A stretch of 36,503 nucleotides of DNA from Bryobacterales bacterium (GTDB taxonomy: Bacteria; Acidobacteriota; Terriglobia; Bryobacterales; Bryobacteraceae): positions 1 to 36,503 of the forward strand of contig SHUI01000010.1 of NCBI GenBank assembly GCA_009697455.1, given 5' to 3'. This document shows positions 10,574 through 33,867 of this stretch, piece by piece (within the stretch, counting starts at the first letter, position 1; each line of letters begins with the position of its first letter). The notes under the pieces were generated by a model that worked only from the letters and a program-made list of their open reading frames with translations, had not been told where the DNA came from and made no database searches. The translations under genes were made by a program, and so were the position numbers.

Positions 10574-10858
10574 CTATGTTCCCGGCGGATGCGGCGGGTC
10601 CGGTTCGGGCGGGTCCGGTTCGGGCGGCTCCAGTTCGGGCGGCTCCAGTTCCGGCGGGTCCGGTTCGGGCGGCTCCAGTTCGGGCGGCTCCAGTTCCGGC
10701 GGCGCCGCGTGGTCCGGCGGGGTCAACCGCACCTCGCACGTGCAACAATCGCTACACCGCCGGCAGCGCTCGCAGATATGGTTATCGCAGGCGTCCTTCG
10801 TGCACCGGACGCAAATCCGCAGCGACGGCTCTTCGCAAATGCTGCAAGTAAAACTCAT
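10574..10858 (-). CDS. Small Cys-rich (B-box/RING-like) protein with a Pro-Glu pentapeptide repeat tail
   Basis: MSFTCSICEEPSLRICVRCTKDACDNHICERCRRCSDCCTCEVRLTPP then (ELEPP/EPDPP)n; start overlaps the upstream stop by 4 bp. Confidence 0.6.
   Translation of the reverse strand: MSFTCSICEEPSLRICVRCTKDACDNHICERCRRCSDCCTCEVRLTPPDHAAPPELEPPELEPPEPDPPELEPPELEPPEPDPPEPDPPHPPGT
10582..10705. repeat. 15-bp tandem repeat encoding ELEPP/EPDPP
   Basis: Plus-strand unit roughly GGCGGSTCCRGTTCS repeated about 7 times in frame with the minus-strand ORF. Confidence 0.9.
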
Positions 10859-15944: not shown

Positions 15945-18800
15945 TCATGTCGAAAACACATGGTCGATTTTGGCGATGCCGCCGCACGCTGCTCGCAGAA
16001 ACCGGCCCGTGTGCGATTCCGCGTTCGCCGCGATGTTCTCCGGCGTGCCGCTCGCGACGATGCGGCCGCCGCCGGCTCCGCCTTCCGGTCCAAGGTCGAT
16101 GACCCAGTCCGCAGCCTTGATCACATCCATATTGTGCTCAATCACCAGCAGACTGCCGCCGTTCGCGATCAGCCGCTGAAACGCCCCGAGCAGTTTCGAA
16201 ATATCGTCGAAGTGCAGGCCTGTCGTGGGCTCGTCGAAAATGAAGAGCGTCCCCGAGCAGGAAGCCTGCGAAAGATGCGCGGCAAGCTTGACACGCTGCG
16301 CCTCGCCTCCGGAAAGCGTTGTAGCGGACTGGCCAAGACGGAGATAGCCCAGGCCGACGTCGTCCAGTACGCGCAGCTTCGCGGCCAGGCGCGGCGTCCC
16401 GGCGAAGAAGCCAAGCGCCTCCCGTACCGTAAGTTGCAGTATCTGGTGGATATTCAGATCGCGGTACCGGATTTCCAACACGCCGCTCTTGAAGCGCGTT
16501 CCGTTGCACTCGTCGCAAATCAGAGCGACATCGGCGAGGAACTGCATTTCGACAGTCACGGTGCCATCGCCCTGGCACGTCTCGCAGCGCCCGCCCGGAA
16601 CGTTGAAAGAGAAATGCCCCGCGCTATAGCTGCGGCGTTCCGCTTCCGCGGTGGACGCGAAGAGAGTCCGGATGATGTCGAACGCCTTGATATAGGTGAC
16701 CGGATTTGAGCGGGGCGTGCGCCCGATGGGCGACTGGTCGATCATGACGGCCTGCTGTATCCGGCCCGCGCCCTCCATGGAGCGGCATGCCACCGGCGGT
16801 GTGGCGTTAGTCGACGGACTGTCGTGGATGCCGGTGTCGAGTGACTGCGTGGCGTCCTCATCCGTCTGCGCCTTGTGCGCGTTCTGAAGCGAGCGGTAAA
16901 TCACATCGTGCACCAGCGTCGATTTTCCGGAACCCGAGACTCCGGTGACCACCACCATCATGCCGAGTGGAATCTCCACATCGACGTTCTTCAGGTTGTG
17001 AGCGCGCGCGCCCTTGAACCGGAGTATCTTGTACGGGTTCACCTCCCGCCGCCGTGCAAGGCCCGTGGCCTTCAATTCTCCTCGAAGATACTTCCCGGTC
17101 AGCGACTCAGGCTCGTTACCCAACAACCGCGAGTACGACCCCTGGTAGATCACGTAGCCGCCGGATTCGCCCGCGCCCGGCCCCAGGTCGACGATGTGGT
17201 CCGCGGCACGCATCACATCCGCGTCGTGCTCCACCACAATGATGGTGTTGCCCAGATCGCGAAGCTCGTGCAGGATGCGGATCAGCCGGCCGGTATCGCG
17301 GCTGTGCAGGCCGATCGAAGGCTCGTCCAAAACGTAGCAGGCGCCCACGAGGCGCGAACCAAGACAGGTGGCGAGTTGAATGCGCTGCGCCTCGCCGCCG
17401 GAAAGAGTGGCGGAAACGCGGTCAAGCGTGAGGTATTCAAGGCCCACGTCGTTCAGAAAGTGAAGACGCTGCCGGATTTCAACCAGGATCTTTTCCGCGA
17501 TCGCCGCGCGCTCGGGCGTCAGTTCGAGCGATTGGAAAAACGCCAGAGCCTCGGCGATGTTCATTTTCGCGACACCGGCCATCGTCATGCCGCCCACGCG
17601 AATGTACAGGGCCTCCTTCCGCAGCCGCGAGCCTTTGCAATCGAGGCACGGAGCGTAGCCACGGTAACGGCTCAGAAACACGCGTACGTGGAGCTTGTAT
17701 TTCTTCTTCTCGAGGAAGTCGAAAAACTCCCGGATTCCGTCGATGGCCGTCTCCTGCTCCGCCGCCGTCAGATCCGCGAACGGCGTGTCAAGCCTCACCT
17801 TGCCTTTTGCGAACTTATGAAAGTGAGGAAGCCAGCCGCGGTACTTCGGCTTGGTCCAAGGGTCGACGGCGCCTTCGTTGATGGACAGGCCGCGGTCGGG
17901 AATCACCAGATCCATGTTGAAATCGACAATATTTCCGAAGCCCTGGCAGCGGGGGCAGGCGCCGGCGGGGCTGTTAAAGCTGAATAGGTTCGGCTCTGCG
18001 TCCAGGAATTCGAGACCGCAGGTCTTGCAGGAAAACTTCTCGCTGAAGCGCAGACGCCGAGGCTCGCCGTCTCTCGGGGCTTCCTCGAAGACGATCTCGC
18101 CGGTCTCGCGGTAGCAGATTTCAACCGTATCGACAATGCGGGCGTGAAGGTCAGGCGCGACGGCCAGCCGGTCGGCCAGGATGAACACCGGCTGTGTGAA
18201 ATCGACATCGAGCAGCGATTCGGGCGTGGAGAACTCGAAGATGCGTCCGGCTTGAAACAGCCGGTTGAAGCCTCTGGCACGCAGGTCCGCGAGGTGATCG
18301 CGCAGCACGGCGTCACCAGCCTCCGCGGGATGGTGAATCGGGAAAAGCGCGAACCATCGCGAGCCGGCCGGCAGAGCGAGGAACTGCGCCGCTACCTGAT
18401 CCACGGTGTCGCGGAGGGCTTCGGTCGAGCAGTTCGGGCAATAGGTGCGGCCGGCGCGCGCGAACAACAACCGCAGAAAATCGTAGCACTCCGTGGACGT
18501 GGCGACGGTCGAGCGCGGGTTCCGCGTCGTGTTTTTCTGACGGATGGCGACTGCCGGCGCGATGCCTAAAATCTCATCGACGGCAGGCTTTTCCATCCGC
18601 TCCAGGAACTGCCGCGCATAGGACGAGAGCGACTCGACGTACCGGCGCTGGCCCTCGGCGTAGATGGTATCGAAGGCGAGCGAGGACTTCCCGGAGCCGG
18701 ATACGCCGGTGATCACGGTCATTTGGTTATGGGGGATGGAAAGCGAGACGTTCTTGAGGTTGTGAACCCGCGCCCCGCGGACATGAATGAACTCTTCCAC
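15945..18800 (-). CDS. uvrA: Excinuclease ABC subunit UvrA
   Basis: 951 aa; two ABC ATPase domains ([58 protein letters not shown]), [38 protein letters not shown]. Confidence 0.96.
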
Positions 18801-18930
18801 GGCTTCCGATGAGATTTCAGTATAGCGTGCGCCTGCCGGTGGAGCGCGGCAATATCCCTTACAAGATATCCGGCGTCGGCCGCCGATGCATCGCTACCGA
18901 ATGGCCAAGGTACGCGACGGCGTTCGACAC

Positions 18931-20997
18931 CTAGATTTGGTACCCCTCTCCCTCGACTCGTGTCTTGATTTCCAGGAGTTTGGCGCACTGCTTTGAGTTC
19001 GGGAGCCTTTTTGGCATCCCGGCTGCGATTGTGACGACTGAGTCCTCTGTCTCGCTGAGGAGTTGCCGCTGTCGTGCCCACGTCTGGAGTGCTCGCCAAT
19101 ACGCTGGCCCGAGTTCGACAACCAGCATCTCCATTTGAATGCCGGTCATGACACTTTGTTCTGCTTGCGCGTCTTTTTTCGCGAGGTGTTCCTCTTCGCG
19201 TCCGGTGAGTTCTTTGCTGAGTCCTGGCAGAAGTATTATCTCGGTGTCACGTGCGCGTTGCCAGCACAGTTCCTTCTTGCACCATTCCGTGACGTTCTGG
19301 AATCCTCCCTCGGGTGCGACGATGATTTCGAACATGCGTTGAGCGATCAGAAGGAGTTGCTGCTCGATAGCGGGGGTGAGGCTCTGTCGGTTCCAGAGGC
19401 CTTTGAAGTCGAGCAGGCCGCCCCTGCCGCGGAACTGGACGAGATTCGCGAGCTTTGCGACGGTGTATGCAACGATGTTTGCGCGATACCCTCCTTGATA
19501 CCAGGGCTGTTTGCCGACGAGCTCTTCGGTGCGCCGGAAGAGCAATGCTTTCACCACGATGCACTTATAGAAGTATTCATTGAACTGGTCCGGGTTTTTC
19601 TCCCATTCCGCCGACGCGTAGTTGCTGAAGTTAATGAAGTTCTTCTGTGCACCCTGGCTGACAATGTGTGGAAAGTAGCGCCACGCGTTCTCGTACTTGG
19701 CCAAGTCGGTTTTAGTGATGAGTTGCTTTCGTGGGTTCTGCAGGAGGAACTGGTTGCGTTGAGCGGCGGTAAGGCGTGACTGTTCATTCACGTACTGCCC
19801 GCGGGCTCGCTCGTACCGCCAATGAGTCCCATACTGAGCGCCACCGGCGGCGGGCGCGCGTAATGCTTTGGCGATCTGCTCCATGCGGCGATGAAAGTCG
19901 TGGTTCGAGAAGAAATCCGCGTCGCTGACCTTGTTCTGGCTATTCGCGTAGCGCGCAATGAGCGGAATGTACTTGCCCGAGGTCTCCGCCGGGAGCACGG
20001 AGAGCTTCATTTGCACAAAGGTCTGCCCGAGACCGCTTTCCTTGTCGGTCATTGCCCCGGCGAGTGTCGCAGTCGTTTGTCCACCATTCACAATCTGCAG
20101 GTCGGTTACATGTGTCAGCCGCAGGCCGGACGCGTCAGCACTCACCGTCGCCGCCGACGCGGTCGCCGCGATGCCATTGTTGTACGCGAAGAACATCGTT
20201 GGCTCAAGCGTCACGGTTTTGCGGATTTCTTTGTTGATTCGTCCGCGCGCGCCAAGAAATGATCGGACGTTCCCCTCCAGCAACCGACTCCCAAAACGGT
20301 CGTAAAGTTCCGCGAGCACGTTACCGGGAATAACGCAGAGGTATGCGCCATACGCATCCGACGGGACACTTGCGTGCAGGCATGGCAGACCGCCAGGCAC
20401 CACGGCCGTGAAGTCCACTTCCAACTCATCACGCCCGGTCTTGCTCTCCTGGACTTGGTGAAACCGATTGATGTCCCAGATGTGCGACTCCGTCGGAATT
20501 CCGGAGACTTCACCTTCCGGCCAATCACGCACCCGCGTGCTGAGCACGCCATCAGTGACCAGGAACAAGCGGATGCGGGCGACGCTCTTCCGGCGTTCGT
20601 ACAAGTTGAGTGCGAGCGAGTATCCTGGTGCGCTATCCTCAAGCTCCCCATGCAGACGGCCACTGAGCGCATCCTCACAGAAAGCCAGCAACCGGGAGAA
20701 GCATGCCTTCGCATTGGTCTGCGTCAACGTGGTCGGCTCCGGCTCGCCGCCATATTCCGCGATCACCAGGCGCACCGACCCATCAAGGTCATCCATGGCA
20801 TAACCGTCCACGCCCAGCGACCGGTTGCGGGAACCCGTCCCCCGGAAGTAGCACGCCTCAAAATCGGCGAGCTCTTCCGCATCACCAAGTAGCTCCGCGC
20901 AGACATCGACGAACTCAGCGTGCGTGAAATTCGCGCCTGCACTCGCGCGTGCTCGCACTTGGTCTAAGAACTCTTCTCGAAACTCCGTCAGGTCCAT
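18931..20997 (-). CDS. AIPR family (abortive infection phage resistance) protein
   Basis: FFAYNNGIAATASAATV...LTHVTDLQIVNGGQTTATLAGAM...FVQMKLSVLP...LIARYANSQNKVSDADFFSNHDFHRRME is the AIPR signature. Start trimmed to ATG 20997 (MDLTEFREEFL); ORF opens at 21039. Confidence 0.92.
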   Translation of the reverse strand: MDLTEFREEFLDQVRARASAGANFTHAEFVDVCAELLGDAEELADFEACYFRGTGSRNRSLGVDGYAMDDLDGSVRLVIAEYGGEPEPTTLTQTNAKACFSRLLAFCEDALSGRLHGELEDSAPGYSLALNLYERRKSVARIRLFLVTDGVLSTRVRDWPEGEVSGIPTESHIWDINRFHQVQESKTGRDELEVDFTAVVPGGLPCLHASVPSDAYGAYLCVIPGNVLAELYDRFGSRLLEGNVRSFLGARGRINKEIRKTVTLEPTMFFAYNNGIAATASAATVSADASGLRLTHVTDLQIVNGGQTTATLAGAMTDKESGLGQTFVQMKLSVLPAETSGKYIPLIARYANSQNKVSDADFFSNHDFHRRMEQIAKALRAPAAGGAQYGTHWRYERARGQYVNEQSRLTAAQRNQFLLQNPRKQLITKTDLAKYENAWRYFPHIVSQGAQKNFINFSNYASAEWEKNPDQFNEYFYKCIVVKALLFRRTEELVGKQPWYQGGYRANIVAYTVAKLANLVQFRGRGGLLDFKGLWNRQSLTPAIEQQLLLIAQRMFEIIVAPEGGFQNVTEWCKKELCWQRARDTEIILLPGLSKELTGREEEHLAKKDAQAEQSVMTGIQMEMLVVELGPAYWRALQTWARQRQLLSETEDSVVTIAAGMPKRLPNSKQCAKLLEIKTRVEGEGYQI

Positions 20998-21013
20998 CGC
21001 CTTCTTGCCTCGT

Positions 21014-21952
21014 CTAGAACTCGACCTCGAACTCCGCACACGAGCGCAGTTCGATGACGTACGTCACGTCTCGGACGCCCTCAGGAACCCCCGTGCGGAT
21101 CAATCGCGGGAAGTCATTGCGCACGTGAAAGTACCGCATACCAGAGACGTGGTACCACGCACGAGCGTATTCCTCGCCGTCAGCATAGCCCGCATCGGCC
21201 AATCGCAACTCGAACTCGGTACTCGCCGCTTGGCTCGTTTCGATATACTGACGGATTCGTGTGACGAGCGCTGCTGTGGTGAACGCATCGGGTGTAGTGC
21301 TCGTGGCAGGGGCGAGCCGGACAACACCCAAGTAGAGCGGTTCGCCTCCGGCGTCAAGCTGCTGGAGTGAGGCAATCGTGACGTCGTCGCTCCCTGGGAC
21401 GCACGTCTTGATCTCGACGAGCGAGGCGTCCAGGAGAAAGTCGTGGGGTGCCGTGAGTGGTCCGAGCCATCCTTTCACGGCGGCGGCCGCGCCGACACGC
21501 GGCAGTGCGACGGTCTGCAGGAACCAGAGCTCACCGATCAGGCCGCGCAGTTCGGCCTCGGAGAGTGTGCGGCCATGACCGACTTCGAGTAGTCTGCGCC
21601 AGCGTCCCAAACGGCGCAGCAGGACATCACCGCCATGCTCCGGTGTTGCTTCGCGCGTGCTATCGATAAGATCCTGGCAGAGTCGTCCGAAGAGCTCGTC
21701 GAAATCCGGTCGCGCCAGTTGGACAATGATTGCCCATTCCTGGTCGTCGCGCTGATTGCACGCGACTTCGACGATGCCAGGCGGCGGAAGAATTGGTGGC
21801 GTGTCTTTGGTCACGAGCAGCAAGACACGCTTGCCCTGGTGATCAATGCCTGCGTACAGGTCGAGCGGGTGCGTTTCGTCGATGCGACGGAAGAGCCCGG
21901 TGCGGCTTGATTGTGTGGCGATCTCCCGCCAGAATTCCTCAACTCTCGTCAT
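21014..21952 (-). CDS. PD-(D/E)XK motif protein (DUF4420-like)
   Basis: APHDFLLDASLVEIKT nuclease-like core, GLIGELWFL, between Z1 and AIPR genes. ORF opens at 21979; ATG 21952 preferred. Confidence 0.85.
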   Translation of the reverse strand: MTRVEEFWREIATQSSRTGLFRRIDETHPLDLYAGIDHQGKRVLLLVTKDTPPILPPPGIVEVACNQRDDQEWAIIVQLARPDFDELFGRLCQDLIDSTREATPEHGGDVLLRRLGRWRRLLEVGHGRTLSEAELRGLIGELWFLQTVALPRVGAAAAVKGWLGPLTAPHDFLLDASLVEIKTCVPGSDDVTIASLQQLDAGGEPLYLGVVRLAPATSTTPDAFTTAALVTRIRQYIETSQAASTEFELRLADAGYADGEEYARAWYHVSGMRYFHVRNDFPRLIRTGVPEGVRDVTYVIELRSCAEFEVEF

Positions 21953-24629
21953 CGTCGTCCATCTCGTCGATGTCTTCATCGATTTCGTTTTCGAGCATGG
22001 CGCGCAACTCGACGAGGTTCACCCTGTACTTGACGCGCCGCGCGACATCATCGTCGTTGAAGTCGGGGAAGCTCAGGCCCAGCGCGATCAGCCCGTCGGG
22101 TGGTTGCTTTTCGCCCGCCTCCGCTTTCGCTTCGATCACGTGGATCAAGAGGAGTGGTCGTGTCCGCGCGACGCGATACACGCTATCTGGCACACTCTTG
22201 GTTCTGTTCTCTGGTTTCTCTTTGAATTGCCGCGTGATCCGTTCGACCAGGTCGGGTTCCATGCCTTCGCGTTCGATGCCGCGCGACGCGACCCTGGCGC
22301 TGCGTCCGGAGACGAGGACGCTATTCTCGTCCACGCGCACTTTGCGCTTATTGCGTCGAACGCTGACGCCTGCCACGTTATCGGGCGTACCTTCTCCTTG
22401 GGGGAAGACGATGTCCCAGTGGCGCAGGCGTTCTTCGGTGGTGCTTTCGATGAAGTTGGCGAGGTCTGCGGCCTGGAAGGAGATGTTGAGTGGGTGGACG
22501 TCGAAGCCGCGCAGCAGTTGCGCGATGAACTGGTTCGGTACCACGCGCCAGAAAGGATTCCCCAGTCCAGATGTTGTTTGTTTGCACCCCTCCTCGCGCA
22601 GTGACGTGATGAAGCGCTCGACGGTGATCCTGTTCGCGCTAATAATGTTCTCATTGCTGCGCAGGCGAGCCGTCTCGGGGCTTTGTCCGCGCATCGAGAT
22701 CACACGTTCCACGGTCTGGGAGTTGCGCATTTTGTTGCGCGCCGTGACCATCAGGGCGTCGGGGTGCGCGCGCACCTTAAGCCCGAAGTCCTGTGGCGTG
22801 CGATCCTGAGCACGCATGCGCTTGAACTCCGTGCGCAGCTCCTCCGTTGCCATGCTGATATACGCGTACCAGTGCACAGCATCATCCGTGAGCCAGAGCC
22901 GACACAGATCAGCGTACCCGTCACGGTACCCGAACCAACGACCCATCTGCAGAAGCGTGTCGTACATCTGCGAGTTACGGAAGAAGTAGCTGGTGCTCAG
23001 TCCTTCAAGGGTCAAGCCGCGCGAGAGGCTGTTCCCGCCGATCGCGATGACGCGCAACCCGTTCTCCCGGTGCTTGGCGTAGTCAAGGCTTGCTGCGCCT
23101 GTGCGTTGGTTCACGGCCTGGATCACGACAGGGAGCGCACCGGCAACGAGCGCGGTCTGCACCGAAGCCCAGGGAATACCCAAGCCGTCATACTCTGCCT
23201 GCCAAGTCGCGTGGAGTGCCGCAATCGTCTCGTTTTTGAGCGCTTCCGTTGGCGGGAGCTGGCTGTAATTGCGAATGTCCTGTTGTACCTGGGAGAGCCA
23301 CGCGTGCAGGAGCGTGCGGACTTGTTCCTGGACGTTCGTCCAGGCGCTCACGTTGACGAGCATGGAGCGATGTGTTGGTCCTTCCTCGCGCAAATCACGG
23401 AGGGTGTTGGACAGGAGAAACGCTCGCGCTGCGTCAAGGAGCGTGCGCGGGAGGTCGTCGATGATGAGAGTGTTCTTGTGCTTTGGCGGGAAGATCGCGT
23501 CAGCATCTTCGATGCCGCGCAGCATGTTGACCCTTGGCTCCTCGCCGAACACGGCTTGTGGCCCCATGTAGTTAGTGGGTGCTTCGAGGCTGTAGATGAA
23601 GTCGCACGGGAACAGGTCGCTCCCGAGCATGTCATCGACATTGTCCGGGTCGATGAAGACGTTCGCGAACGGTGTTGCCGTAAATCCGACGTAGCTTGAG
23701 TGCGTGAACAGGCGCAGGAGCGCGCGGATGCGCGTATTGATCGCGGTCGGGTCTTCGGCGGCTGAGCGCGTGTTGACGCTCGCGCTATCCGCCTCATCGT
23801 CAATGACGAGGACGGGAGCGTCGATAAACCCTCCGGCCCCCGCGTTGAACTCGGTGAGCCATCGCTCCAGGTGCTCCAGAATCTTCTTGTTCTTCTTCAC
23901 GACGACGAGGACGGGGATCTTGAAGCTGTCTAGGCGGAACCCGAGCGCGTTCAAGAGGGCCTTCTTGAAATCGTGCTCACGCGACGTGAACACTCCAGCA
24001 TCTTTTCGCCCATCGATCAGGCCGACGCCGATGGCTGCACGGCTGCGGATCTTACGGAGTTCGCCCGAGCTATCAAGGCCGACAAATCCCTCATCCAAAC
24101 GCTCTTGGGTCTGGCGGCGCAAACTCTCCAGGGTGCCGGTCAAGAGAATAATCAGGCGGTACCCGACGTCCCCGGCTTTACAGCAGAGCGCGGTGTACGT
24201 TGCGGTCTTGCCGGATTGCACGTCGCCAACCACGAGTCTCCGGCGCTTCCACGGAGTTGTCTGAGTGGGATTTCCGAGCAGATCGAGGATATCGTCGGTA
24301 ACACGGTCGAGCGTGGACACCACTCGAGGTGGCCAGTCTTTTTTTTGGAGAAACTTATGGAAGCGGTCCCAGTAGAAGGGATCAATGCTTGGCTTGAGCG
24401 CATTGAGCCATGGGGTGTGCTCCGCGACGAGTGCGACACCCGTATCCATCTCGATGGACAGTTTCGCGTGCAGTTGGCGCAGTAGCGTGTCGAACTCCTC
24501 GTCAGCGACGGTGAACACGGCGCGCAATCGTGTGGCGAGGTCCCTGATCTCTTGCTCGGTCGGTGGACGATCATTGGGGAGCGATACGATGATGGTCCGC
24601 TCCAGGGACCGAAAATTGTCACTGGTCAT
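21939..24629 (-). CDS. Z1 domain protein (superfamily II helicase-like, Z1 endonuclease family)
   Basis: Walker A RRRLVVGDVQSGKTATYTALCCKA, Walker B PVLVIDDEADSASVNT, GFTATPFANVFID, VIAIGGNSLSRGLTLEGLSTSYFFRNSQMYDTLLQMGRWFGYRDGY are diagnostic Z1 motifs. Confidence 0.95.
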   Translation of the reverse strand: MTSDNFRSLERTIIVSLPNDRPPTEQEIRDLATRLRAVFTVADEEFDTLLRQLHAKLSIEMDTGVALVAEHTPWLNALKPSIDPFYWDRFHKFLQKKDWPPRVVSTLDRVTDDILDLLGNPTQTTPWKRRRLVVGDVQSGKTATYTALCCKAGDVGYRLIILLTGTLESLRRQTQERLDEGFVGLDSSGELRKIRSRAAIGVGLIDGRKDAGVFTSREHDFKKALLNALGFRLDSFKIPVLVVVKKNKKILEHLERWLTEFNAGAGGFIDAPVLVIDDEADSASVNTRSAAEDPTAINTRIRALLRLFTHSSYVGFTATPFANVFIDPDNVDDMLGSDLFPCDFIYSLEAPTNYMGPQAVFGEEPRVNMLRGIEDADAIFPPKHKNTLIIDDLPRTLLDAARAFLLSNTLRDLREEGPTHRSMLVNVSAWTNVQEQVRTLLHAWLSQVQQDIRNYSQLPPTEALKNETIAALHATWQAEYDGLGIPWASVQTALVAGALPVVIQAVNQRTGAASLDYAKHRENGLRVIAIGGNSLSRGLTLEGLSTSYFFRNSQMYDTLLQMGRWFGYRDGYADLCRLWLTDDAVHWYAYISMATEELRTEFKRMRAQDRTPQDFGLKVRAHPDALMVTARNKMRNSQTVERVISMRGQSPETARLRSNENIISANRITVERFITSLREEGCKQTTSGLGNPFWRVVPNQFIAQLLRGFDVHPLNISFQAADLANFIESTTEERLRHWDIVFPQGEGTPDNVAGVSVRRNKRKVRVDENSVLVSGRSARVASRGIEREGMEPDLVERITRQFKEKPENRTKSVPDSVYRVARTRPLLLIHVIEAKAEAGEKQPPDGLIALGLSFPDFNDDDVARRVKYRVNLVELRAMLENEIDEDIDEMDDDDES

Positions 24630-26219
24630 AAGTTCAGTGTCCGTGCTATAGCCCGCGCCTCTTCGACCGCACCGCTAAAGGGTTCAATGGACGGCAGCGC
24701 AGCGAGGAATCGCTTCCCCTCCTCCGTCTCGCGGCCACCGAGAATTGCTAGCAGACGCTGCGCAAGCGTGAGCAGGGTTTGTCGCGCGTCGTCCGCCGGT
24801 TCTTCTGTTGCGGGACGCAATTCTGAGGCTAGGTCCGCATACAACGCATCGAACGGAAGCGTCTGCTCCAACACACGGAGAAATGCCTCAAACAGCGGCA
24901 GTTCGTCGTCCCCGATACCGGCTTCCACCGCAGCAACAAGCGGGTGCGTCCGGTTGATCGTGTAGGAGATGCCATCGCGCACGACGGTCCGGTCCCAGGT
25001 GTGCGTGATCGCATCCGACGATTTCCTTCCGCGATACGTGTACACCCGGCGGCTGCTCTCCGTGATTCGGCTAATGATCTGTTTCAGTCCTTCTCGCAGT
25101 GATGCGGGGGGATACGTTGTTGACTTCTTGATGTCGAGTTGCCACAAATGATCCAGGCGATTGGAGATGTCCACTTGCACCCGCGCGAGCTTCGTCAGTT
25201 CTTCTTGTCGCACGAGGCGAAACCAAGACCCCCAACTGATGAGGCGCCGATTCCGGTAGATGTAGAACCCCTGATTTCCACGCAGTCCGTCTTCTCCCCC
25301 GGCAAGCTGGAGGTCCGCAACGCTGAGCTTAGAAATGTGCGGCAGAATGAACGGGGCAACAACGACGCGTTCATGCTCCACGACAAAGTCTTGTATCGGC
25401 AGTGCTTGGGTTGCTTTGTGAGTTATGAGAAACGGGTCGACGGAGCGAAGCGAGTTGCGGTTGATGCTCATCGCGACCGGTCGCGTTCCAAGCGGCGGAT
25501 TGAGAAACCGGTGGAAGACCAGTGAGAGATGGTCGCGCGCAAGATCCATGCGAATCCCAAATGCTCGCTCAAGGGAAGGCTCGCCCGCCGCAAGCCGGTC
25601 AAACTCTTGCCAGAGCACTACAGTCCCATGGCTCTGCGCGCGTAGCTCGTCAACTAACGGCAGCTTGTTCGCCTCGGCGTCCGTGAGTTGGAGGAGCATC
25701 CAATCCTGCCGCCTAGCGACATGATCGAGGTCCCACCGACGCGCGCTCAACACTCCTTAGCTTGAGCGAGATAACGGTCAGCCGACGGCATTGGGAGAGC
25801 GATGCAGTTTTCAGGCCAAGGCCGAACCGTCCCAGATCCTTCGCGTCCCGCGCAAGTCGTGGATCACGGCTCCCGTGGCGCATCGCAGCAGTGGTTTCGT
25901 CGGGTGTCATCCCCCAACCATCGTCGAGAATCGCAACGTACGGGGACTCGTAGGGTGAGAACTGCACCTCTACGCGGTGCGCATCGGCGGAGAGACTGTT
26001 GTCGATCAGGTCTGCGAGTGCGGCCTCGAAGGAGTACCCGAGTGCACGCATGGATTCGAGCAGGTCCGAGGACGACGGGGGCAGACAAATCTCCGCGATC
26101 TCCCGGACCAGGCTCGTAGCTTGTGTGGACTCCGGCACACTCCATATCGTATTCCGAACAGAGCGCCGGTGCACGTGGCACCAACCATTGAAGTTACGAG
26201 AAGGCTGGTCGATTTCCAC
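24626..26219 (-). pseudogene. MutL/MORC-like GHKL ATPase, split by an apparent 1-nt frameshift (ORFs 25713-26219 and 24626-25753)
   Basis: N-terminal part: ALADLIDNSLSA, AILDDGWGMTPDET, DLGRFGLGLKTASLSQCRRLTVISLK. C-terminal part: SARRWDLDHVARRQDWMLLQL...INRNSLRSVDPFL...NQGFYIYRNRRLISWGSWFRL. Removing one base in CTCAAGCTAAGGAGTG (about 25757-25766) restores ...LTVISLKQGVLSARRWDLDHV.... Confidence 0.85.
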
Positions 26220-26289
26220 GGTGCTATGCCGAAAGCAGCTTGTGTTTCTCCGCTAGCGCGGCAGTGCTAAGAGAAGCTTCGTGGAGTCA

Positions 26290-27879
26290 TCACTGGTATC
26301 GAGGGTCATCACGGAGCCGTGGCGTTGTTGCGTTCGCGGGCGTAAGGATGCCCAGTACGAGGTGCGCGATCTGTTGCGCGAGCAGGGGTGGTACGGCGTT
26401 CCCGACCTGGCGATACTGTGCGGTACGCGTGCCGCAAAACAGGTAGTTGTCGGGAAAGGTTTGTACGCGCGCCGCTTCTCTCACAGTCAGGCTGCGACAT
26501 TGGGCCGGGTCATAGTGAATGTAGTAGTGCCCGTCCTTGGACATGTGGCATGTTATGGTCGTTGATGGGCGGTCGGGGACTTGGACGCGGAAGCGATCAT
26601 CGAAGTACAGTTCTTTGCCCACCTCGCTCACGTTACGGTGTCGTGGGAGCAGCGTAACCGGAAAATCTCGTAGTTCCGGTGATCGCCCGACGACCTTTGC
26701 GTATGCGGTCGCGAACAAGTACCGATGTAGATCGGACGCCATGTGGGGTCGAGAGGCATGATTGACGACCCCACCAATCCGGGAATCAAGGAACCAATCG
26801 GGCCGGTACCCGATGCTCGCCTCGCACGGCACGAATTCGCCGCCGCGATCCGCTCGATAGTTTCTGATGGCAGCAAGCCCATCGATCACAGCACGCCGCA
26901 CTTCCGGGTAGTGCCCGTTCGGGAGCGTCTTGAGCAGGTCGGAATTTGCCAGATCCTGAAGCGCCGCACGCCACTCCTCAGGGCCGTCAGTCGTGCGCGA
27001 GAGCCCACTACGCAGCTTCGGCAAGCCCTGCAATACCTGCGAGACCGGGACCTGACGCGGTGCGGGATTCAGTATCGGTACGCTGGCGGTCCACAAATCC
27101 TCCCGCACGCCAAGCAAAATCACCCGGTGGCGCGATTGCGGCACGCCGAACCGTTCGCTGCGGATGACAAATTCCTGTGGGTCAAACTGAGGATTCCCCT
27201 CAGCATCGAACCGCCGGGGCGCGTGCACAAGCGAGAGTACGCGATACTGCGCGGCACTCCGTTTGTTCCCCACGGAAGCCCCCGGAATATGGAGATCGGC
27301 GAGAATCTGCGCAAACAGCCCACTCCCCGCGATTCGCGACGACAACAATCCCTTGACGTTCTCCATGATGAATACGGACGGCTCGTGCTCGGCGAGAATA
27401 CGGAGGTATTCCCGGTACAAATAGACGCGATTGTCGTTATGATCGATCCCTCCACGACGGGATCGGCCTACGGTCGAGTATGCCTGGCATGGTGGCCCGC
27501 CACACAGGACCCACTGGGGAATACACCCGACCGCTTGCGCGATGCGTTCGTGCAACTCGTTCGCTGGCACCTTGCCCAGTTCTGCTAGCCACGCTTCCGC
27601 ACTGGCACGCTTGGCCTGCACCGGGTGCAGTGCGAAGAGTTTCTCCGTCTTGATGTTTCCGCGCAACCGTTCATAGTAGTCTTTAGGAGCCGTCCCGGGC
27701 GGGAACTGGCGAAAGAAGCTCCGCAACTCCAGCGTGGTGTGCGCGTCCGGGTCCATCTCTATTGATAAGCGGACCTGAAACGCGGGTTGCTGCGCGTCTG
27801 TCAGGCACGACGCAAATCCTTCACCGAGCCCTCCCGGGCCAGCGAAGAGATCAACGACGGGGATAGGCTGTCCGCTCAT
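26290..27879 (-). CDS. DNA (cytosine-5) methyltransferase
   Basis: VVDLFAGPGGLGEGF (motif I), VLCGGPPCQAYSTVGRSRRGG (motif IV), FIMENVKGLLSS (motif VI), LTVREAARVQTFPDNYLF...YRQVGNAVPPLLA (motifs IX-X). Confidence 0.96.
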   Translation of the reverse strand: MSGQPIPVVDLFAGPGGLGEGFASCLTDAQQPAFQVRLSIEMDPDAHTTLELRSFFRQFPPGTAPKDYYERLRGNIKTEKLFALHPVQAKRASAEAWLAELGKVPANELHERIAQAVGCIPQWVLCGGPPCQAYSTVGRSRRGGIDHNDNRVYLYREYLRILAEHEPSVFIMENVKGLLSSRIAGSGLFAQILADLHIPGASVGNKRSAAQYRVLSLVHAPRRFDAEGNPQFDPQEFVIRSERFGVPQSRHRVILLGVREDLWTASVPILNPAPRQVPVSQVLQGLPKLRSGLSRTTDGPEEWRAALQDLANSDLLKTLPNGHYPEVRRAVIDGLAAIRNYRADRGGEFVPCEASIGYRPDWFLDSRIGGVVNHASRPHMASDLHRYLFATAYAKVVGRSPELRDFPVTLLPRHRNVSEVGKELYFDDRFRVQVPDRPSTTITCHMSKDGHYYIHYDPAQCRSLTVREAARVQTFPDNYLFCGTRTAQYRQVGNAVPPLLAQQIAHLVLGILTPANATTPRLRDDPRYQ

Positions 27880-28295
27880 GCATGCCGTTCCCTGGTGAGC
27901 GCTCGCACCAGCCGCCGGGCGACGCGGTTTTCATCGGCGAGTTCACATTCCCACACCGTCATGACCCGCCAGCCCAGTGACCGAAGTTCTTCACCGATGC
28001 GTCCATCACGCGCGGCATTGCCCTTCAACTTTGCTTCCCAAAAAGGGCGCCTCGATGTTGGCATGGAAGCATTCCGGCAACCCTTGTGCTGATGCCAGAA
28101 GCAACCGTGCACGAAAACTACCGCGTGACGCGCAGGCAACACAATATCAGGCTTTCCTGGCAAATCCTTTCGGCGAAGCGAAAAACGAAATCCCAAACGG
28201 TGCAGCAAGGAACGGACACACTTCTCCGGGACAGTATCGCGACCGCGAATGCGGCTCATATTCCAACTGCGGTGTTCTGGCGTAATGCGATCCAT
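27876..28295 (-). CDS. vsr: Very short patch repair (Vsr) endonuclease
   Basis: MDRITPEHRSWNMSRIRGRDTVPEKCVRSLLHRLGFRFSLRRKDLPGKPDIVLPARHAVVFVHGCFWHQHKGCRNASMPTSRRPFWEAKLKGNAARD; ATGA overlap with the methyltransferase gene. Confidence 0.95.
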   Translation of the reverse strand: MDRITPEHRSWNMSRIRGRDTVPEKCVRSLLHRLGFRFSLRRKDLPGKPDIVLPARHAVVFVHGCFWHQHKGCRNASMPTSRRPFWEAKLKGNAARDGRIGEELRSLGWRVMTVWECELADENRVARRLVRALTRERHA

Positions 28296-28638
28296 GGAGA
28301 AACGCCGCAAGACCGAATAATCTACTCTAGCATCCGATCTTGGCCGCGGCTTGGCAAGTCCGACCAATGCTCTAACTACCAAAGGCTTTGGCTTGTTTCC
28401 CGTCAGGCAAGGTACGATGCCAGGAGAAATTTGTTAACGGTGCCGCACACATGGTGCACACAAATCCTCGCTGATCTCGTTGCGACGCAACAAAACAAGA
28501 AGCAGCCAGTACGGCAAACGCTGAAGCGAATCAGGGAGGAATCCACGGCAACCTAAGGTGCCCTCCCAGGTGCCCCCCCTGTTTGCGCGCTCCTGTTCGG
28601 CAGACAACCGCTGAGATGCATGTGGATGGACCAAATGC

Positions 28639-28827
28639 CTAGCACTTGTGATTTCGTTTTTCGGCCCTCTCAACCGTCATAGCGCCGCACGTACAGCGGA
28701 GCTTCGTTCGCGGCCTGCCCGGTCCAGGGGTCGCGGTCACGCGCAAGGACGCGCGGAAGCGTCCCCATAGGGACCTAATCTGGTCAGAAGTCAGGTTGTG
28801 CCCGCAGTGCGGACAGGGGATATTCAC
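28639..28827 (-). CDS. Small zinc-ribbon-like protein
   Basis: VNIPCPHCGHNLTSDQIRSLWGRFRASLRV...GRPRTKLRCTCGAMTVERAEKRNHKC, two CxxC/CxC pairs. GTG at 28827 overlaps the stop of the next upstream ORF (GTGA). Confidence 0.6.
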   Translation of the reverse strand: MNIPCPHCGHNLTSDQIRSLWGRFRASLRVTATPGPGRPRTKLRCTCGAMTVERAEKRNHKC

Positions 28828-29072
28828 GACCTCAACCCCCGTGCCTTGATCCAAGCGTCAACGGCATCCTGCACGGCGTTCCAGAAATCCGTCTCTTCGT
28901 TGTCGAAATCATGCTCGAATGCGCCGCCGTATCCGTTGGCGTCGACGTGGTCGTGCAACTCACTGTAAGAGGCACAAGTCGCGGGGACGGTCCCTTCGGC
29001 AACGTCGCCAAGAATCTCGGATTTGGACCGCTCGATAGCCTGTTCGAGTGTCGTCCACGTCGGTTTAACCAT
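28824..29072 (-). CDS. Small acidic hypothetical protein, coupled to the zinc-ribbon ORF
   Basis: 82 aa: MVKPTWTTLEQAIERSKSEILGDVAEGTVPATCASYSELHDHVDANGYGGAFEHDFDNEETDFWNAVQDAVDAWIKARGLRS; stop overlaps the downstream start. Confidence 0.6.
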   Translation of the reverse strand: MVKPTWTTLEQAIERSKSEILGDVAEGTVPATCASYSELHDHVDANGYGGAFEHDFDNEETDFWNAVQDAVDAWIKARGLRS

Positions 29073-29215
29073 GAGCTGACCATAAACAACAAGACGTTTA
29101 ATGTCAAGATGTGTTTTAAGTGTTTTACCTTGCCCTTAAAATCGAACTCAACGGTGCACCGCCTGTTCTTCCGGTTTGACGCTATCTTCGAACGGTTTTT
29201 GTTGACCAGGGAACC

Positions 29216-29815
29216 TTGGCGGGGCAACCGGTTCCGGCTGCCTGCCGTGCGAAGCGCGGCCCCGCTCTCGCTATCTCTGCGGCATGCTGCTCAGATCCCG
29301 CCGTCTCCCGGGTCACAACACTTGAAATATTTTCCACACGGAGCCCAAAGCCTCTAGCCGAATCCCAACCAGCCTCCCCGACCCGGACGTATATAATTCG
29401 AACGGGGAAACCAGTGACCGGCCTTCGCGAACGCCCTGCGGAAAAACGAAAATAAATTCTCTGCGTCACCCCCCTTTCAAGTGTATGATAAAACAAAACT
29501 TACAAACCAGCGTGAGTGGGGTTGGTGGGGTAGCCGGTTTCCGGCTGCATGCCGTGCGAAGCGCGGTTCTGCTCTCGCTATTTCTCGCGGTACGCCGCTC
29601 AGCTCCAGCCGTCTCCCGTCACAACACTTGAAATATTTTCCACATGAATCCCAAAGCCTTAGTCGAATCCCAACCAGCCTCCCGGACCCGGGCGTATATA
29701 ATCCGAACCGAGGAACCAGTGACCGGACTTTGCGAACGCCCCGCGGAAAAAGCGAAAATAAATTCTCCGCGTAACCCCCCTTTCAAGTGCATGATAAAAC
29801 AAAACTTACAGGCGG
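29216..29815. repeat. Two tandem imperfect copies of a ~306-bp non-coding element
   Basis: Matched landmarks: GTGCGAAGCGCGG at 29247 and 29554; CACTTGAAATATTTTCCACA at 29319 and 29625; CAACCAGCCTCCC...GTATATAAT...ACCAGTGACCGG; TTTCAAGTG at 29475 and 29781; AAACAAAACTTACA at 29491 and 29797. Offsets are 306-307 bp. Confidence 0.92.
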
Positions 29816-29870
29816 ATGCGCTACCTGCCTGCCGTGCGAAGCGCGGCCTGCCGACAGGTTTCGATTGAGG
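29816..29870. repeat. Partial third copy (5' end) of the ~306-bp element
   Basis: CTGCCTGCCGTGCGAAGCGCGGCC repeated with GTGCGAAGCGCGG at 29834; similarity stops soon after. Confidence 0.65.
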
Positions 29871-30018
29871 CGCCGGACAAGCGTTTCAACGAGCGGCACA
29901 TCGCTTCGGAGGGCACGGAAATCGGCAAGGAACGGCACCTGCCACGGACACTCCCCCACTTCGGTTAAGTACCCGCGCGTCACTCGTCACCGCGCCCCTC
30001 TGTGCTAACCTGAGCCTG

Positions 30019-30483
30019 ATGCAACTTTCGGATGTCTTCCTCGCTCTGGGGCAGGATTCCTTCGCTCGGCTAATAGGCTCAATCTCCATCGGCAAGCTCA
30101 AGACCTATCAAGTCTACGAGCGATTCAAGACCCGTTGCCATCTCGCAAAGCTCAACACCGAGACCTTGCAAAAAGCCGTTCCCCGTTTGTGGGCGCGCAT
30201 CGGTGAGCGTGACGACGAGTTCGCCACCGATCTCGCGCAGGCCGTGCTTATTTCGCGCATGGACATGATTGTCGCCGTTCTCGATTTTCTCGGCGTGCCG
30301 CACCAGAACGGATTCTTCGACAAAGACATGGACGCGAAACAGCATTTCACCGAAGGTTGGGAGCGTCGTTGTGTCGAGAAGTTTCGCGGCGAATTTCCGG
30401 AAGCCGCTCTCGTGTTTTACCTCAATCATCTCGGTTGGGAGCTCGGCGTGACGGCGGAAGCGTTCGTGCCCGCCACAGCCTAG
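30019..30483 (+). CDS. Conserved hypothetical protein upstream of pheS
   Basis: 154 aa ORF, 6 bp upstream of pheS and co-directional; antisense ORFs here are less plausible. Confidence 0.75.
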   Translation: MQLSDVFLALGQDSFARLIGSISIGKLKTYQVYERFKTRCHLAKLNTETLQKAVPRLWARIGERDDEFATDLAQAVLISRMDMIVAVLDFLGVPHQNGFFDKDMDAKQHFTEGWERRCVEKFRGEFPEAALVFYLNHLGWELGVTAEAFVPATA

Positions 30484-30489
30484 GCCCCC

Positions 30490-31512
30490 ATGCTCGAAGC
30501 CACGCTATCGGCGCTCGAACAGAGCGCGCGCCTGAGGATTGCCGGGGCTCAATCCCTTGAAGAGTTGGAAGCGGTCCGCGTGGACGCGCTCGGCCGTAAG
30601 GGGACGCTCGCGCAAGCCAGCAAGGAGATGGGCAAGGTCCCTGCGGAGGAACGCGGCCGTATCGGCAAGCTCCTGAACGCCGTTAAGCAGCAACTTGAGG
30701 AGGCGCTCGACGCGAAGAAACGCCATTTCGAGGAGGCCGCGCTCAAAGCCCGCCTGGATTCGGAGTGGATCGATCTCACGCTGCCAGCGGCCGGCGTGCC
30801 GCGCGGGCACCTGCATCCAATTTCGAAGATCCAGGCCGAAATTGAGGACCTGTTCATTTCGATGGGGTTCGTCGTGCTCGACGGGCCTGAGGTCGAGACG
30901 GAATATCACAATTTCGACGCACTGAACATACCCGCCGACCACCCGGCGCGCGACATGCAGGACACGTTTTGGGTCGAGGGCGGGCACGTCCTCAGGACAC
31001 ACACCTCGCCCGTCCAGGTGCGCGGCATGGAGAAACTCGGCCCGCCGCTGCGCATGATCGCGCCGGGGCGCGTGTTCCGTAACGAGAGCGTGGACGCTTC
31101 CCACGACCACACGTTCTACCAGCTTGAAGGGATGATGATCGACCGCGACGTCTCGGTCGGGAACCTGACCTACTTCATGAAGACGCTGCTCGGCAGCATC
31201 TTCGGCCGCGAGGTTACAGTGCGGCTGCGGCCTGGCTTCTTCCCGTTTGTCGAGCCGGGTTTTGAACTCGACATCCAGTGCCTCCTCTGCGGCGGTCCGG
31301 GGTGCGCCGTTTGCAAGCAAAGCGGATGGGTGGAATTGTTACCATGCGGGCTGGTGAATCCGAATGTGCTGCGGATGAGCGGCATTGATCCGGAAGAGTG
31401 GAACGGCTTCGCCTTCGGCCTGGGCATGACGCGCCTCGTGATGATGCGCTATGGGATTGACGACATCCGGCAGCTCCAAAGCGGCAGCTTGCGTTTCTTG
31501 AATCAATTTTAG
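30490..31512 (+). CDS. pheS: Phenylalanyl-tRNA synthetase alpha subunit
   Basis: HPISKIQAEIEDLFISMGFVVLDGPEVETEYHNFDALNIPADHPARDMQDTFWV...LLRTHTSPVQVR-like...GRVFRNESVDASHDHTFYQLEGMMID...GFAFGLGMTRLVMMRYGIDDIRQL. Confidence 0.98.
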   Translation: MLEATLSALEQSARLRIAGAQSLEELEAVRVDALGRKGTLAQASKEMGKVPAEERGRIGKLLNAVKQQLEEALDAKKRHFEEAALKARLDSEWIDLTLPAAGVPRGHLHPISKIQAEIEDLFISMGFVVLDGPEVETEYHNFDALNIPADHPARDMQDTFWVEGGHVLRTHTSPVQVRGMEKLGPPLRMIAPGRVFRNESVDASHDHTFYQLEGMMIDRDVSVGNLTYFMKTLLGSIFGREVTVRLRPGFFPFVEPGFELDIQCLLCGGPGCAVCKQSGWVELLPCGLVNPNVLRMSGIDPEEWNGFAFGLGMTRLVMMRYGIDDIRQLQSGSLRFLNQF

Positions 31513-31535
31513 CAACAATAGGATAGGGTTCTGTT

Positions 31536-33839
31536 TTGAAGTTTTCTTTCAATTGGATACGCGAGTTTACGGACGTCCCTCAATCGACCTCGGCGCGAGA
31601 CCTTGAGCGCCTGATCACGATGAAAACGGCCGAATGCGAAGGCATCGAACCGGTGGGCGATCTCCTGGCAACGGCCTGCCTCGCAACAGTGGTATCGGTT
31701 GAAGAAATGCCCGGTGGACATCACCGGAAAGCCGTTGTCGAAACGGAGCGCTACGGGCTGAAAACCGTTGTCTGCGGCGCGCCCAATTGCCGGGCCGGAA
31801 TGAAAACGGTGTACGTGCCTCTGGGAACGAAAACCATCGGCGGCGTCGAGAGCGACGGCATGCTGGCGAGCGGGGCGGAACTCAGCATCAATCGGGACGC
31901 CGCTGGAATCGTCGACCTGGCCGCCGGCGAGACGCTCGACCGGTGCGCGCCGGATGGTGTGATCGAGATCGACAACAAGTCGATCACCCACCGTCCGGAC
32001 CTGTGGGGGCACTACGGGATGGCCCGGGAAGTAGCGGCGATCCTCGGTTCGGAACTGCGCGATCCCGTCAGCATGGACCTGCTGCCAGCCGGGAACGCCG
32101 CTATAGGCGTCTCGATCGTGGATTTCAGCCTCTGCGCACGTTACAGCGCGCTTGTTTTCGAAAACGTGACCGTGAGGCCCTCACCGCTCTGGCTTCAGTA
32201 CCGCCTTGAGGCGATCGGCCTGAATCCGATCAACAACATCGTCGACTTCACCAACTTCATCATGGCGGAGTTGGGTCAGCCGACGCATGCTTTCGACCGG
32301 GATTTGATCGAGGGCGGCACGATTTTCGTCCGTCCCGCCAAGACCGGGGAAAGCATCCGCGCACTGAACGGCGAAGACTACGATCTTTCCGAAACGAATC
32401 TCGTGATCGCGGACGCGAGCGGGCCCGTTGCGATCGCGGGCGTCATCGGCGGCGAGGCGACCGCGATCGGCGGCCGCACCACGTCCATCATTCTCGAGAG
32501 CGCCAACTTCCTGGCTGCGAGCGTCCGCAAAACTTCCGCGCAGTTGAAGCTCCGGACCGACGCTTCCATGCGCTTCGAAAAGGCTCAGGACCCCGAGAAT
32601 ACGACGCGGGCGTTGGCGCGCGCCGTGGCGCTGCTCGAAGAGCTCTCGCCGGGGATTCGGCTTGTAGGCGGCGTTGCGGACGAGCGGAAACCTGCCGTGC
32701 CGCAGCCCGTGATTCAACTGCCGCTGGACTGGTTGGCGCGAAAGCTTGGGCGCTCGCTCGAAGTGGCGGAAGTGCGCCAGATCCTGGAACGCCTGCAGTT
32801 TGGCGTGTCGGAGAGTTCGCCCGGCGTGCTCGCGGTGACGGTCCCTTCCTGGCGCGCGACGAAGGACATCGCAGTCAAGGACGATCTGGTGGAAGAAGTA
32901 GGCCGGATGATTGGATACTCTTCGATTGATCCGCGTCCGCCCGCGTTGCTGGCTTCGCCGCCGAAACCCGATCCCACGCGATTGTTTCACCGCGAGCTTC
33001 GCGCGCTGTTGACAGGCATCGGCTTCACGGAAGTGTACAACTATTCCTTCGTCAGCGAAGAAGAGATCGGACGATTCGGCTTCACCGCGGCAGAACACGT
33101 GGCGGTCTTGAATCCGATTGCGTCCGGTCAAGAGCTGCTGCGAACATCGTTGTTGCCGGGAATCCGGCGGAACGTAGTCGAAAACACCAAGTATTTCGAC
33201 AGTTTCCGGCTATTCGAAATTGGGCGCGAGATTCACAGGCAACCGGCGGGTCTGCCCGGCGAACCCGCGCATCTGGTGGCCGTGGTGCATGCGCGGGATG
33301 ACGGCGCGCGGGGGCTTTTCGAACTGAAGCATGCGGCGGAAGCCATCCTGCCCGGAGCGGAAATCCGTCCGGTGGAGGCGCGAAGTTTCGAGCATCCAGC
33401 GAGAGCCGCGGAGGTCGTGTGGCGCGGCGAAACGGTGGGCCGGTTATTCGAATTCGGACCGTCGATGGAGATCGATGGGCGCGCCGCCGTGCTCGACCTC
33501 GATTTGAGAAAAGTGGGCCGGCGAATGGGCGGTGAGTCGAAGTACAGGCCACCCGGAAAGTACCCGTCAAGCGAGTTCGACTTGTCGGTGCTGGCCGGGC
33601 TGCGCGAGTATGTGGGTGACCTGCGGGCCAAGGTTGAGGGCTTCGCAGGCAGCTTGGCCGAGAGCGTCGAATACGTGCGGCAGTACTCGGGACCGCCGTT
33701 TTCGGAGGGCGTGAAGTCCGTTACGTTCCGGCTGCGCGTGGGGTCGCCCGAGCGGACCCTCGCATCGGAAGAGGTAGGCGCGGTTCGCGCCGCGATCATC
33801 GAAGGCATGCAGGGGCTGGGCTACGAACTGCGCGTGTGA
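31536..33839 (+). CDS. pheT: Phenylalanyl-tRNA synthetase beta subunit
   Basis: 767 aa; MKFSFNWIREFTD start (TTG), NNIVDFTNFIMAELGQPTHAFD, IAGVIGGEATAI, YPSSEFDLSVLAGLREYVGDLRAKVEG, C-terminal anticodon-binding-like domain. Confidence 0.97.
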   Translation: MKFSFNWIREFTDVPQSTSARDLERLITMKTAECEGIEPVGDLLATACLATVVSVEEMPGGHHRKAVVETERYGLKTVVCGAPNCRAGMKTVYVPLGTKTIGGVESDGMLASGAELSINRDAAGIVDLAAGETLDRCAPDGVIEIDNKSITHRPDLWGHYGMAREVAAILGSELRDPVSMDLLPAGNAAIGVSIVDFSLCARYSALVFENVTVRPSPLWLQYRLEAIGLNPINNIVDFTNFIMAELGQPTHAFDRDLIEGGTIFVRPAKTGESIRALNGEDYDLSETNLVIADASGPVAIAGVIGGEATAIGGRTTSIILESANFLAASVRKTSAQLKLRTDASMRFEKAQDPENTTRALARAVALLEELSPGIRLVGGVADERKPAVPQPVIQLPLDWLARKLGRSLEVAEVRQILERLQFGVSESSPGVLAVTVPSWRATKDIAVKDDLVEEVGRMIGYSSIDPRPPALLASPPKPDPTRLFHRELRALLTGIGFTEVYNYSFVSEEEIGRFGFTAAEHVAVLNPIASGQELLRTSLLPGIRRNVVENTKYFDSFRLFEIGREIHRQPAGLPGEPAHLVAVVHARDDGARGLFELKHAAEAILPGAEIRPVEARSFEHPARAAEVVWRGETVGRLFEFGPSMEIDGRAAVLDLDLRKVGRRMGGESKYRPPGKYPSSEFDLSVLAGLREYVGDLRAKVEGFAGSLAESVEYVRQYSGPPFSEGVKSVTFRLRVGSPERTLASEEVGAVRAAIIEGMQGLGYELRV

Positions 33840-33867
33840 GGCGCGGCCTTGATACGCTGAGGAGCAG

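What the first reader, a model, noticed from the sequence alone, without database searches (positions are those of the whole stretch)
18931..28295. Six-gene MZA-like defence operon with an added Vsr endonuclease
Seen: six co-directional, mostly overlapping minus-strand genes encoding Vsr, 5mC methyltransferase, GHKL/MutL-like ATPase, Z1, DUF4420 PD-(D/E)XK and AIPR, placed between uvrA and the pheST locus. Known: MutL/MORC-like ATPases linked to Z1, PD-(D/E)XK and AIPR proteins in restriction-modification contexts have been described, and the methylase+MutL+Z1+DUF+AIPR set is the MZA antiviral system. The core is therefore not novel. Worth a look: Vsr is translationally coupled to the methylase (ATGA) and sits at the head of the operon, so T:G repair of deaminated 5mC and the MutL-like ATPase may form one functional unit. 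Two potential nucleases (DUF4420, Vsr) and a helicase-like Z1 give several possible effectors.
Basis: partly seen in the sequence, partly recalled or inferred. Interest (0 to 1): 0.72.

Follow-up and report, generated by a model that had tools for sequence, protein, structure and literature searches.

The report
Methylase-linked MORC/Z1 defence island, ATPase broken
This is an 11-kb bacterial immunity island of an already described restriction-like kind, whose mismatch-repair gene is a usual companion of its DNA methylase and whose key ATPase gene is interrupted by a frameshift in this assembly.

Summary
Three points change the picture.

(1) The GHKL gene (mzaB) is not intact. It is split into two ORFs by a one-base shift at about 25736-25759. 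All 12 relatives aligned there read through.

(2) Vsr is not an unusual addition. Of 35 other loci with the BCDE core and a methylase, 28 also carry vsr. Seven of these have the order vsr-dcm-BCDE on one strand (one with two extra genes inserted, one with its AIPR gene split). Vsr in MORC-type operons was reported in 2008, and a methylase+Z1+PD-(D/E)XK+AIPR+MORC system was predicted in 2022.

MzaA of the validated system is a sigma factor. No MzaA match lies on this contig, and NCBI's MzaB-E equivalog cut-offs are not reached.

The locus is a discrete ~11.1-kb insertion; a same-genus genome has the empty site. BCDE evolve as a block; Dcm and Vsr are looser satellites. Most likely a restriction-like system whose methylase protects self DNA and whose Vsr repairs deaminated 5mC; as assembled probably inactive, unless the frameshift is an assembly error.

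The parts
27876..28295 (-). vsr, very short patch repair endonuclease, 139 aa from ATG 28295; catalytic and zinc residues kept
   Evidence: PF03852 4.7e-28; TIGR00632 139 bits over cut-off 97.85; aligned to E. coli Vsr structure 1cw0
26290..27879 (-). C5-cytosine DNA methyltransferase, 529 aa; start overlaps the vsr stop (ATGA)
   Evidence: PF00145 2.9e-43; TIGR00675 over cut-off; ATGA overlap
25713..26219 (-). mzaB N-terminal fragment: GHKL ATP-binding half, ends in about 15 out-of-frame residues and a TAG
   Evidence: HATPase_c_3 3.3e-27; MzaB profile 8-115
25736..25759 (-). frameshift interval: fits one extra base relative to all relatives; not a homopolymer
24626..25753 (-). mzaB C-terminal fragment: S5-like half and C-terminal region in another frame, still open over 375 codons
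   Evidence: MzaB profile 122-433, 1.4e-47; 44-49% identity to L003-L005
21939..24629 (-). mzaC: Z1-domain SF2 helicase-like ATPase, 896 aa; Walker A GDVQSGKT invariant, IDDEAD kept
   Evidence: Z1 6.8e-76; MzaC 3.4e-129; alignment
21014..21979 (-). mzaD: DUF4420 PD-(D/E)XK nuclease-like protein (HD..VEIK motif kept)
   Evidence: PF14390 5.8e-70; MzaD 9.2e-20
18931..20997 (-). mzaE: AIPR protein, 688 aa from the likely ATG (ORF runs to 21039)
   Evidence: AIPR 1.9e-93, AIPR_N 9.2e-42; MzaE 1.1e-77; starts of relatives
18833..29970 (.). whole inserted island, about 11.1 kb, between uvrA and the gene before pheS; ends known to about 10 bases
   Evidence: empty site in same-genus genome G002, locus L066

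Best explanation
A horizontally acquired, restriction-modification-like immunity island. Its fixed core is a MORC-type GHKL ATPase (MzaB), a Z1 helicase-like ATPase (MzaC), a PD-(D/E)XK nuclease (MzaD) and an AIPR protein (MzaE). Most likely the 5mC methylase marks host DNA as self. The core then acts on unmarked invading DNA: MzaB clamps or loops DNA, MzaC moves along or unwinds it, and MzaD cuts; the role of MzaE is unknown. Vsr is the methylase's companion: it nicks T:G mismatches left when its 5mC deaminates, so it prevents mutation at the modified sites and may also make loss of the methylase costly. In this genome as assembled, mzaB carries a one-base frameshift just after its ATP-binding motifs, so the restriction arm is probably dead while methylase and Vsr can still be made. 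Shown here: gene content, insertion, frameshift, Vsr frequency, core co-evolution. Inferred: every biochemical step.
For: Domains. Core order B>C>D>E, one strand, in all 37 surveyed loci; 36 of 37 have a C5 methylase within the survey range, 29 have Vsr. Core proteins share distance patterns (r 0.88-0.94); Dcm-core 0.66-0.72, Vsr-core 0.53-0.57. Vsr lies next to Dcm in 27 of 29. Phylum-wide, 54 of 68 Vsr genes have a C5 methylase within 5 kb. The MzaB model of a full-length relative matches MORC2 bound to DNA at 5.9e-14. Empty site. Frameshift. Iyer 2008 proposed DNA looping by the GHKL protein and unwinding by the helicase in such operons.
Against: No activity has been shown for this locus or, as far as the held papers tell, for the methylase-linked branch. 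The validated MZA works with a sigma factor instead of a methylase, so self-marking may not be how the core works. The MzaE model has no significant structural match. The frameshift may be an assembly error (MAG of 320 contigs, 74% complete).
Confidence: 0.6

Rival explanations
1. One reading: Vsr and the GHKL ATPase form one functional unit, Vsr being a MutL-style nuclease partner or an effector of the defence system.
For: MutL binds and stimulates Vsr in Neisseria, and E. coli MutL stimulates the same enzymes (PMC6116569). Vsr is more frequent at MZA-type loci (28/35) than at other C5 methylases of the window's phylum (54/113; Fisher p = 0.0009 over mixed taxa, 8/9 and p = 0.03 within the phylum). 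In L003 and L035 Vsr sits at the other end of the core from Dcm.
Against: Vsr correlates with MzaB about as with the other core proteins (0.57 versus 0.53-0.57) and best with Dcm (0.60). 7 of 35 loci have the core and a methylase but no Vsr. MzaB is structurally closer to MORC than to MutL. The host has its own MutL.
Confidence: 0.1
2. Vsr works mainly as an addiction element: it makes loss of the methylase, and so of the whole island, costly.
For: In Caulobacter, loss of the methylase ScmA triggers VsrA-dependent DNA damage (PMC12907096). vsr and dcm overlap by ATGA here and in a Rhizobium leguminosarum locus.
Against: Not tested for any MZA-type locus; in Caulobacter vsr and the methylase are unlinked. 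Compatible with the best explanation rather than opposed to it.
Confidence: 0.2
3. The mzaB frameshift is an assembly or sequencing error and the system is intact and active.
For: Both fragments keep 44-66% identity to relatives L003-L005 with no other damage. The genome is a fragmented MAG.
Against: The site is not a homopolymer. uvrA, pheS and pheT in the same contig are unbroken. Other loci of this family also decay: AIPR split in L053, several genes broken in L056.
Confidence: 0.4
4. Split MzaB works as two polypeptides or through programmed frameshifting.
For: Both halves remain open and an AAGGAG sequence lies at the junction.
Against: None of 12 relatives shares it. No stop codon sits at the shift point, and the in-frame GTG/TTG starts there overlap or nearly touch the AAGGAG, too close for normal initiation.
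Confidence: 0.03

Closest known systems
Candidate defence system 'Type II' of Miller, Stern and Burstein 2022 (PMC9523054)
   Same: Z1 protein, PD-(D/E)XK protein, cytosine methyltransferase, AIPR protein, MORC-family ATPase; the paper calls it reminiscent of MZA.
   Different: mzaB is frameshifted here; Vsr is part of the operon (the paper notes DNA repair endonucleases for its Type I).
MORC/paraMORC restriction-modification operons, Iyer, Abhiman and Aravind 2008 (PMC2292703)
   Same: GHKL ATPase with S5 domain plus SF2 helicases, C5 methylase, Vsr-family and other RE-fold nucleases, AIPR.
   Different: The sub-family (MORC or paraMORC1-5) was not assigned here; the gene is broken.
MZA (mzaABCDE), Gao et al. 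2020
   Same: Homologues of MzaB, C, D and E in the same order.
   Different: No sigma-factor MzaA; methylase plus Vsr instead; all four NCBI equivalog cut-offs missed.
Rhizobium leguminosarum RCAM1365 plasmid p_1 (CP050515.1), vsr-dcm-GHKL-Z1-PD(D/E)XK-AIPR
   Same: Same order and strand, same ATGA overlap of vsr and dcm.
   Different: Distant (34% identity in Z1); its AIPR gene rather than mzaB is split.
E. coli Vsr/Dcm short-patch repair
   Same: Vsr 1.9e-27 to the solved E. coli enzyme, catalytic residues kept.
   Different: Sits in a defence island; target motif of the methylase unknown.

Membership tests
MZA (mzaABCDE, Gao 2020) | MzaA sigma factor | tested here: not met
   MzaA profile PDLC02203 has no match on the window contig; MzaA is a sigma factor
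MZA (mzaABCDE, Gao 2020) | MzaB-C-D-E homologues in order | tested here: met
   PADLOC PDLC02204-02207 all hit, with mzaB in two pieces
MZA (mzaABCDE, Gao 2020) | NCBI equivalog cut-offs for MzaB-E | tested here: not met
   MzaC 520/1500, MzaD 130/420, MzaE 326/1050 bits; MzaB fragments 116 and 210 of 850
MZA (mzaABCDE, Gao 2020) | anti-phage activity | not testable with these tools
   needs an experiment
Candidate Type II system (Miller 2022) | Z1 + PD-(D/E)XK + C5 methylase core plus AIPR | tested here: met
   composition
Candidate Type II system (Miller 2022) | associated MORC-family ATPase | tested here: met
   full-length relative L003 models as MORC-like; the window copy is frameshifted
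MORC/paraMORC R-M operons (Iyer 2008) | GHKL motifs plus S5 domain in one open protein | tested here: not met
   motifs present but split over two frames
MORC/paraMORC R-M operons (Iyer 2008) | neighbouring methylase, helicase, RE-fold/Vsr nucleases | tested here: met
MutL mismatch-repair protein | MutL C-terminal domain | tested here: not met
   no Pfam match in the C-terminal fragment; host MutL_C is on contig C117
Vsr | TIGR00632 cut-off and catalytic residues | tested here: met
   139.2 against 97.85 bits; alignment to 1cw0

The most novel reading that the evidence does not exclude
Vsr is a selected part of these loci beyond serving the methylase, either as an addiction element that locks in the methylase or as a partner of the MORC-type ATPase. 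It is enriched at MZA-type loci over other C5 methylases of the window's phylum (28/35 versus 54/113) and in two loci lies across the core from Dcm.
Probability: 0.15. Interest if true: 0.5.

Novelty: new member of a known kind. Interest (0 to 1): 0.22.

Why it matters
It corrects the description of this family. The methylase-linked branch differs from validated MZA by having a methylase (usually with Vsr) where MZA has a sigma factor. The survey gives numbers: an invariant BCDE block with movable Dcm and Vsr satellites, which makes the roles of the satellites testable. This particular copy matters little because its ATPase gene is interrupted.

Tried and rejected
Programmed frameshift or split protein: no relative shares the break. 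Vsr as a special companion of the window's methylase type: 10/10 versus 18/25 for other types, p = 0.08, too weak. MzaE as a known nuclease by fold: best PDB match E = 0.43 (weak Can2/NucC resemblance), inconclusive. Target-site duplication at the island ends: none clear. RNA genes in the island: none. Promoter and terminator scans: no more than chance. An automatic check of core order was faulty because it also counted Dcm; the order was read from the tables.

Full report
Observation. The window holds, on the minus strand between uvrA and the pheS/pheT genes, vsr (27876-28295), a C5 methylase (26290-27879), a GHKL ATPase, a Z1 protein (21939-24629), a DUF4420 protein (21014-21979) and an AIPR protein (18931-20997). 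The vsr stop and methylase start overlap as ATGA. Active-site motifs are in place in Vsr and Z1 (Walker A GDVQSGKT, IDDEAD); by inspection of the translations also in the methylase (PPC, ENV) and DUF4420 (VEIK).

The GHKL gene is in two ORFs in different frames, 25713-26219 and 24626-25753, matching consecutive parts of the MzaB profile. The text around the junction fits one extra base within 25736-25759, in a place that is not a homopolymer. Twelve relatives have one open frame across it. The break falls just behind the ATP-binding motifs and separates them from the S5-like half. The downstream fragment is still open and 44-49% identical to relatives L003-L005, so the change is recent or an assembly error. 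Neighbouring housekeeping genes are unbroken. The genome is a 320-contig MAG, 74% complete, and reads are not available to decide.

The island. In a same-genus genome (G002, locus L066; pheS 96% identical) the uvrA start is joined directly to the gene before pheS. Window 18662-18836 and 29972-33855 align to adjacent bases of L066, and the junction lies near 18833 and 29970. The island is therefore about 11.1 kb and also contains two small ORFs (28824-29072, 28639-28827) and two copies of a 306-base repeat that occurs elsewhere in the genome.

Survey. MzaC relatives were collected from GTDB contigs, phylum and closer relatives, viral contigs and plasmids, and their neighbourhoods were scanned with profiles built from the loci. 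Of 37 loci with all of B, C, D and E, every one has them in that order and on one strand. 36 have a C5 methylase and 29 a Vsr. Excluding the window, 28 of 35 with a methylase carry Vsr. The layout vsr-dcm-BCDE on one strand occurs in L006, L007, L009, L060 and L061, and with small changes in L052 (extra genes between dcm and mzaB) and L053 (AIPR split); L053 also shares the ATGA overlap. Elsewhere Dcm and Vsr lie on either side and in either direction. Sequence distances within the core correlate at 0.88-0.94, Dcm with core at 0.66-0.72, Vsr with core at 0.53-0.57 and Vsr with Dcm at 0.60. The core is inherited as a block; Dcm and Vsr are swapped more often or evolve less in step.

Is Vsr more than a methylase companion? 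In 199 genomes of the phylum, 54 of 68 Vsr genes have a C5 methylase within 5 kb, and 54 of 113 non-MZA methylases have a Vsr within 10 kb. MZA-type loci exceed that (28/35; within the phylum 8/9; p = 0.0009 and 0.03). The first comparison mixes taxa and slightly different distance limits, and neither corrects for relatedness. So the linkage is not random, but it is mostly what the methylase alone would bring.

Known systems. Iyer et al. 2008 described such operons with Vsr. Miller et al. 2022 predicted a defence system of Z1, PD-(D/E)XK, cytosine methylase, AIPR and MORC, and state that MzaA of the validated MZA system is a sigma factor. Sigma-factor genes do stand before mzaB in L048 and L057. 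The window has no MzaA match and misses the NCBI equivalog cut-offs for MzaB-E. So it works like, but is not, MZA in the strict sense. It belongs to the methylase-linked branch.

Mechanism. A full-length MzaB relative models best on MORC2/3/4 ATPase modules, one of them with DNA bound, with MutL further down the list (mean pLDDT 73). Together with Z1 and a PD-(D/E)XK protein this fits a clamp-translocase-nuclease machine that spares methylated DNA, with Vsr for T:G repair at methylated sites. These steps are inference. MzaE has no significant structural match. With mzaB split, the restriction arm of this copy is probably inactive.

Noticed in passing
window 29216-29810: Two tandem copies (88%) of a 306-base repeat at the island's upstream end; further near-full copies, also in pairs, on contigs C29 and C119 and many partial copies across the genome: a dispersed non-coding repeat family.
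   Followed up: partly
window 28824-29072 and 28639-28827, minus strand: Two overlapping small ORFs (82 aa, and 62 aa with a CxxC...CxC zinc-ribbon look) inside the island, upstream of vsr; the 82-aa protein has no Pfam match and one weak plasmid match (Cupriavidus, conjugative).
   Followed up: partly
G000 contig C59:100-926 (locus L001): A second vsr next to another C5 methylase elsewhere in the same genome.
   Followed up: no
L053 13608-15552 and L056 8539-15692: Other loci of this family are decaying too: AIPR split in Rhizobium leguminosarum, and methylase, MzaB, Z1 and AIPR broken in Devosia sp.
   Followed up: no
L048 6064-8316 and L057 6476-8359: Sigma-70 family genes directly before mzaB: loci that look like true MzaA-bearing MZA; L057 has in addition a vsr-dcm-type II restriction enzyme cassette beside it.
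   Followed up: no
L063, L052, L074: Z1 loci with DUF3883 proteins nearby; L063 and L073 have the B-C-D part without a detectable AIPR.
   Followed up: no
window 10593-10703: A 15-base tandem repeat (7.4 copies, GGCGGCTCCAGTTCG), a multiple of three, possibly a Gly/Ser-rich linker in a neighbouring gene.
   Followed up: no
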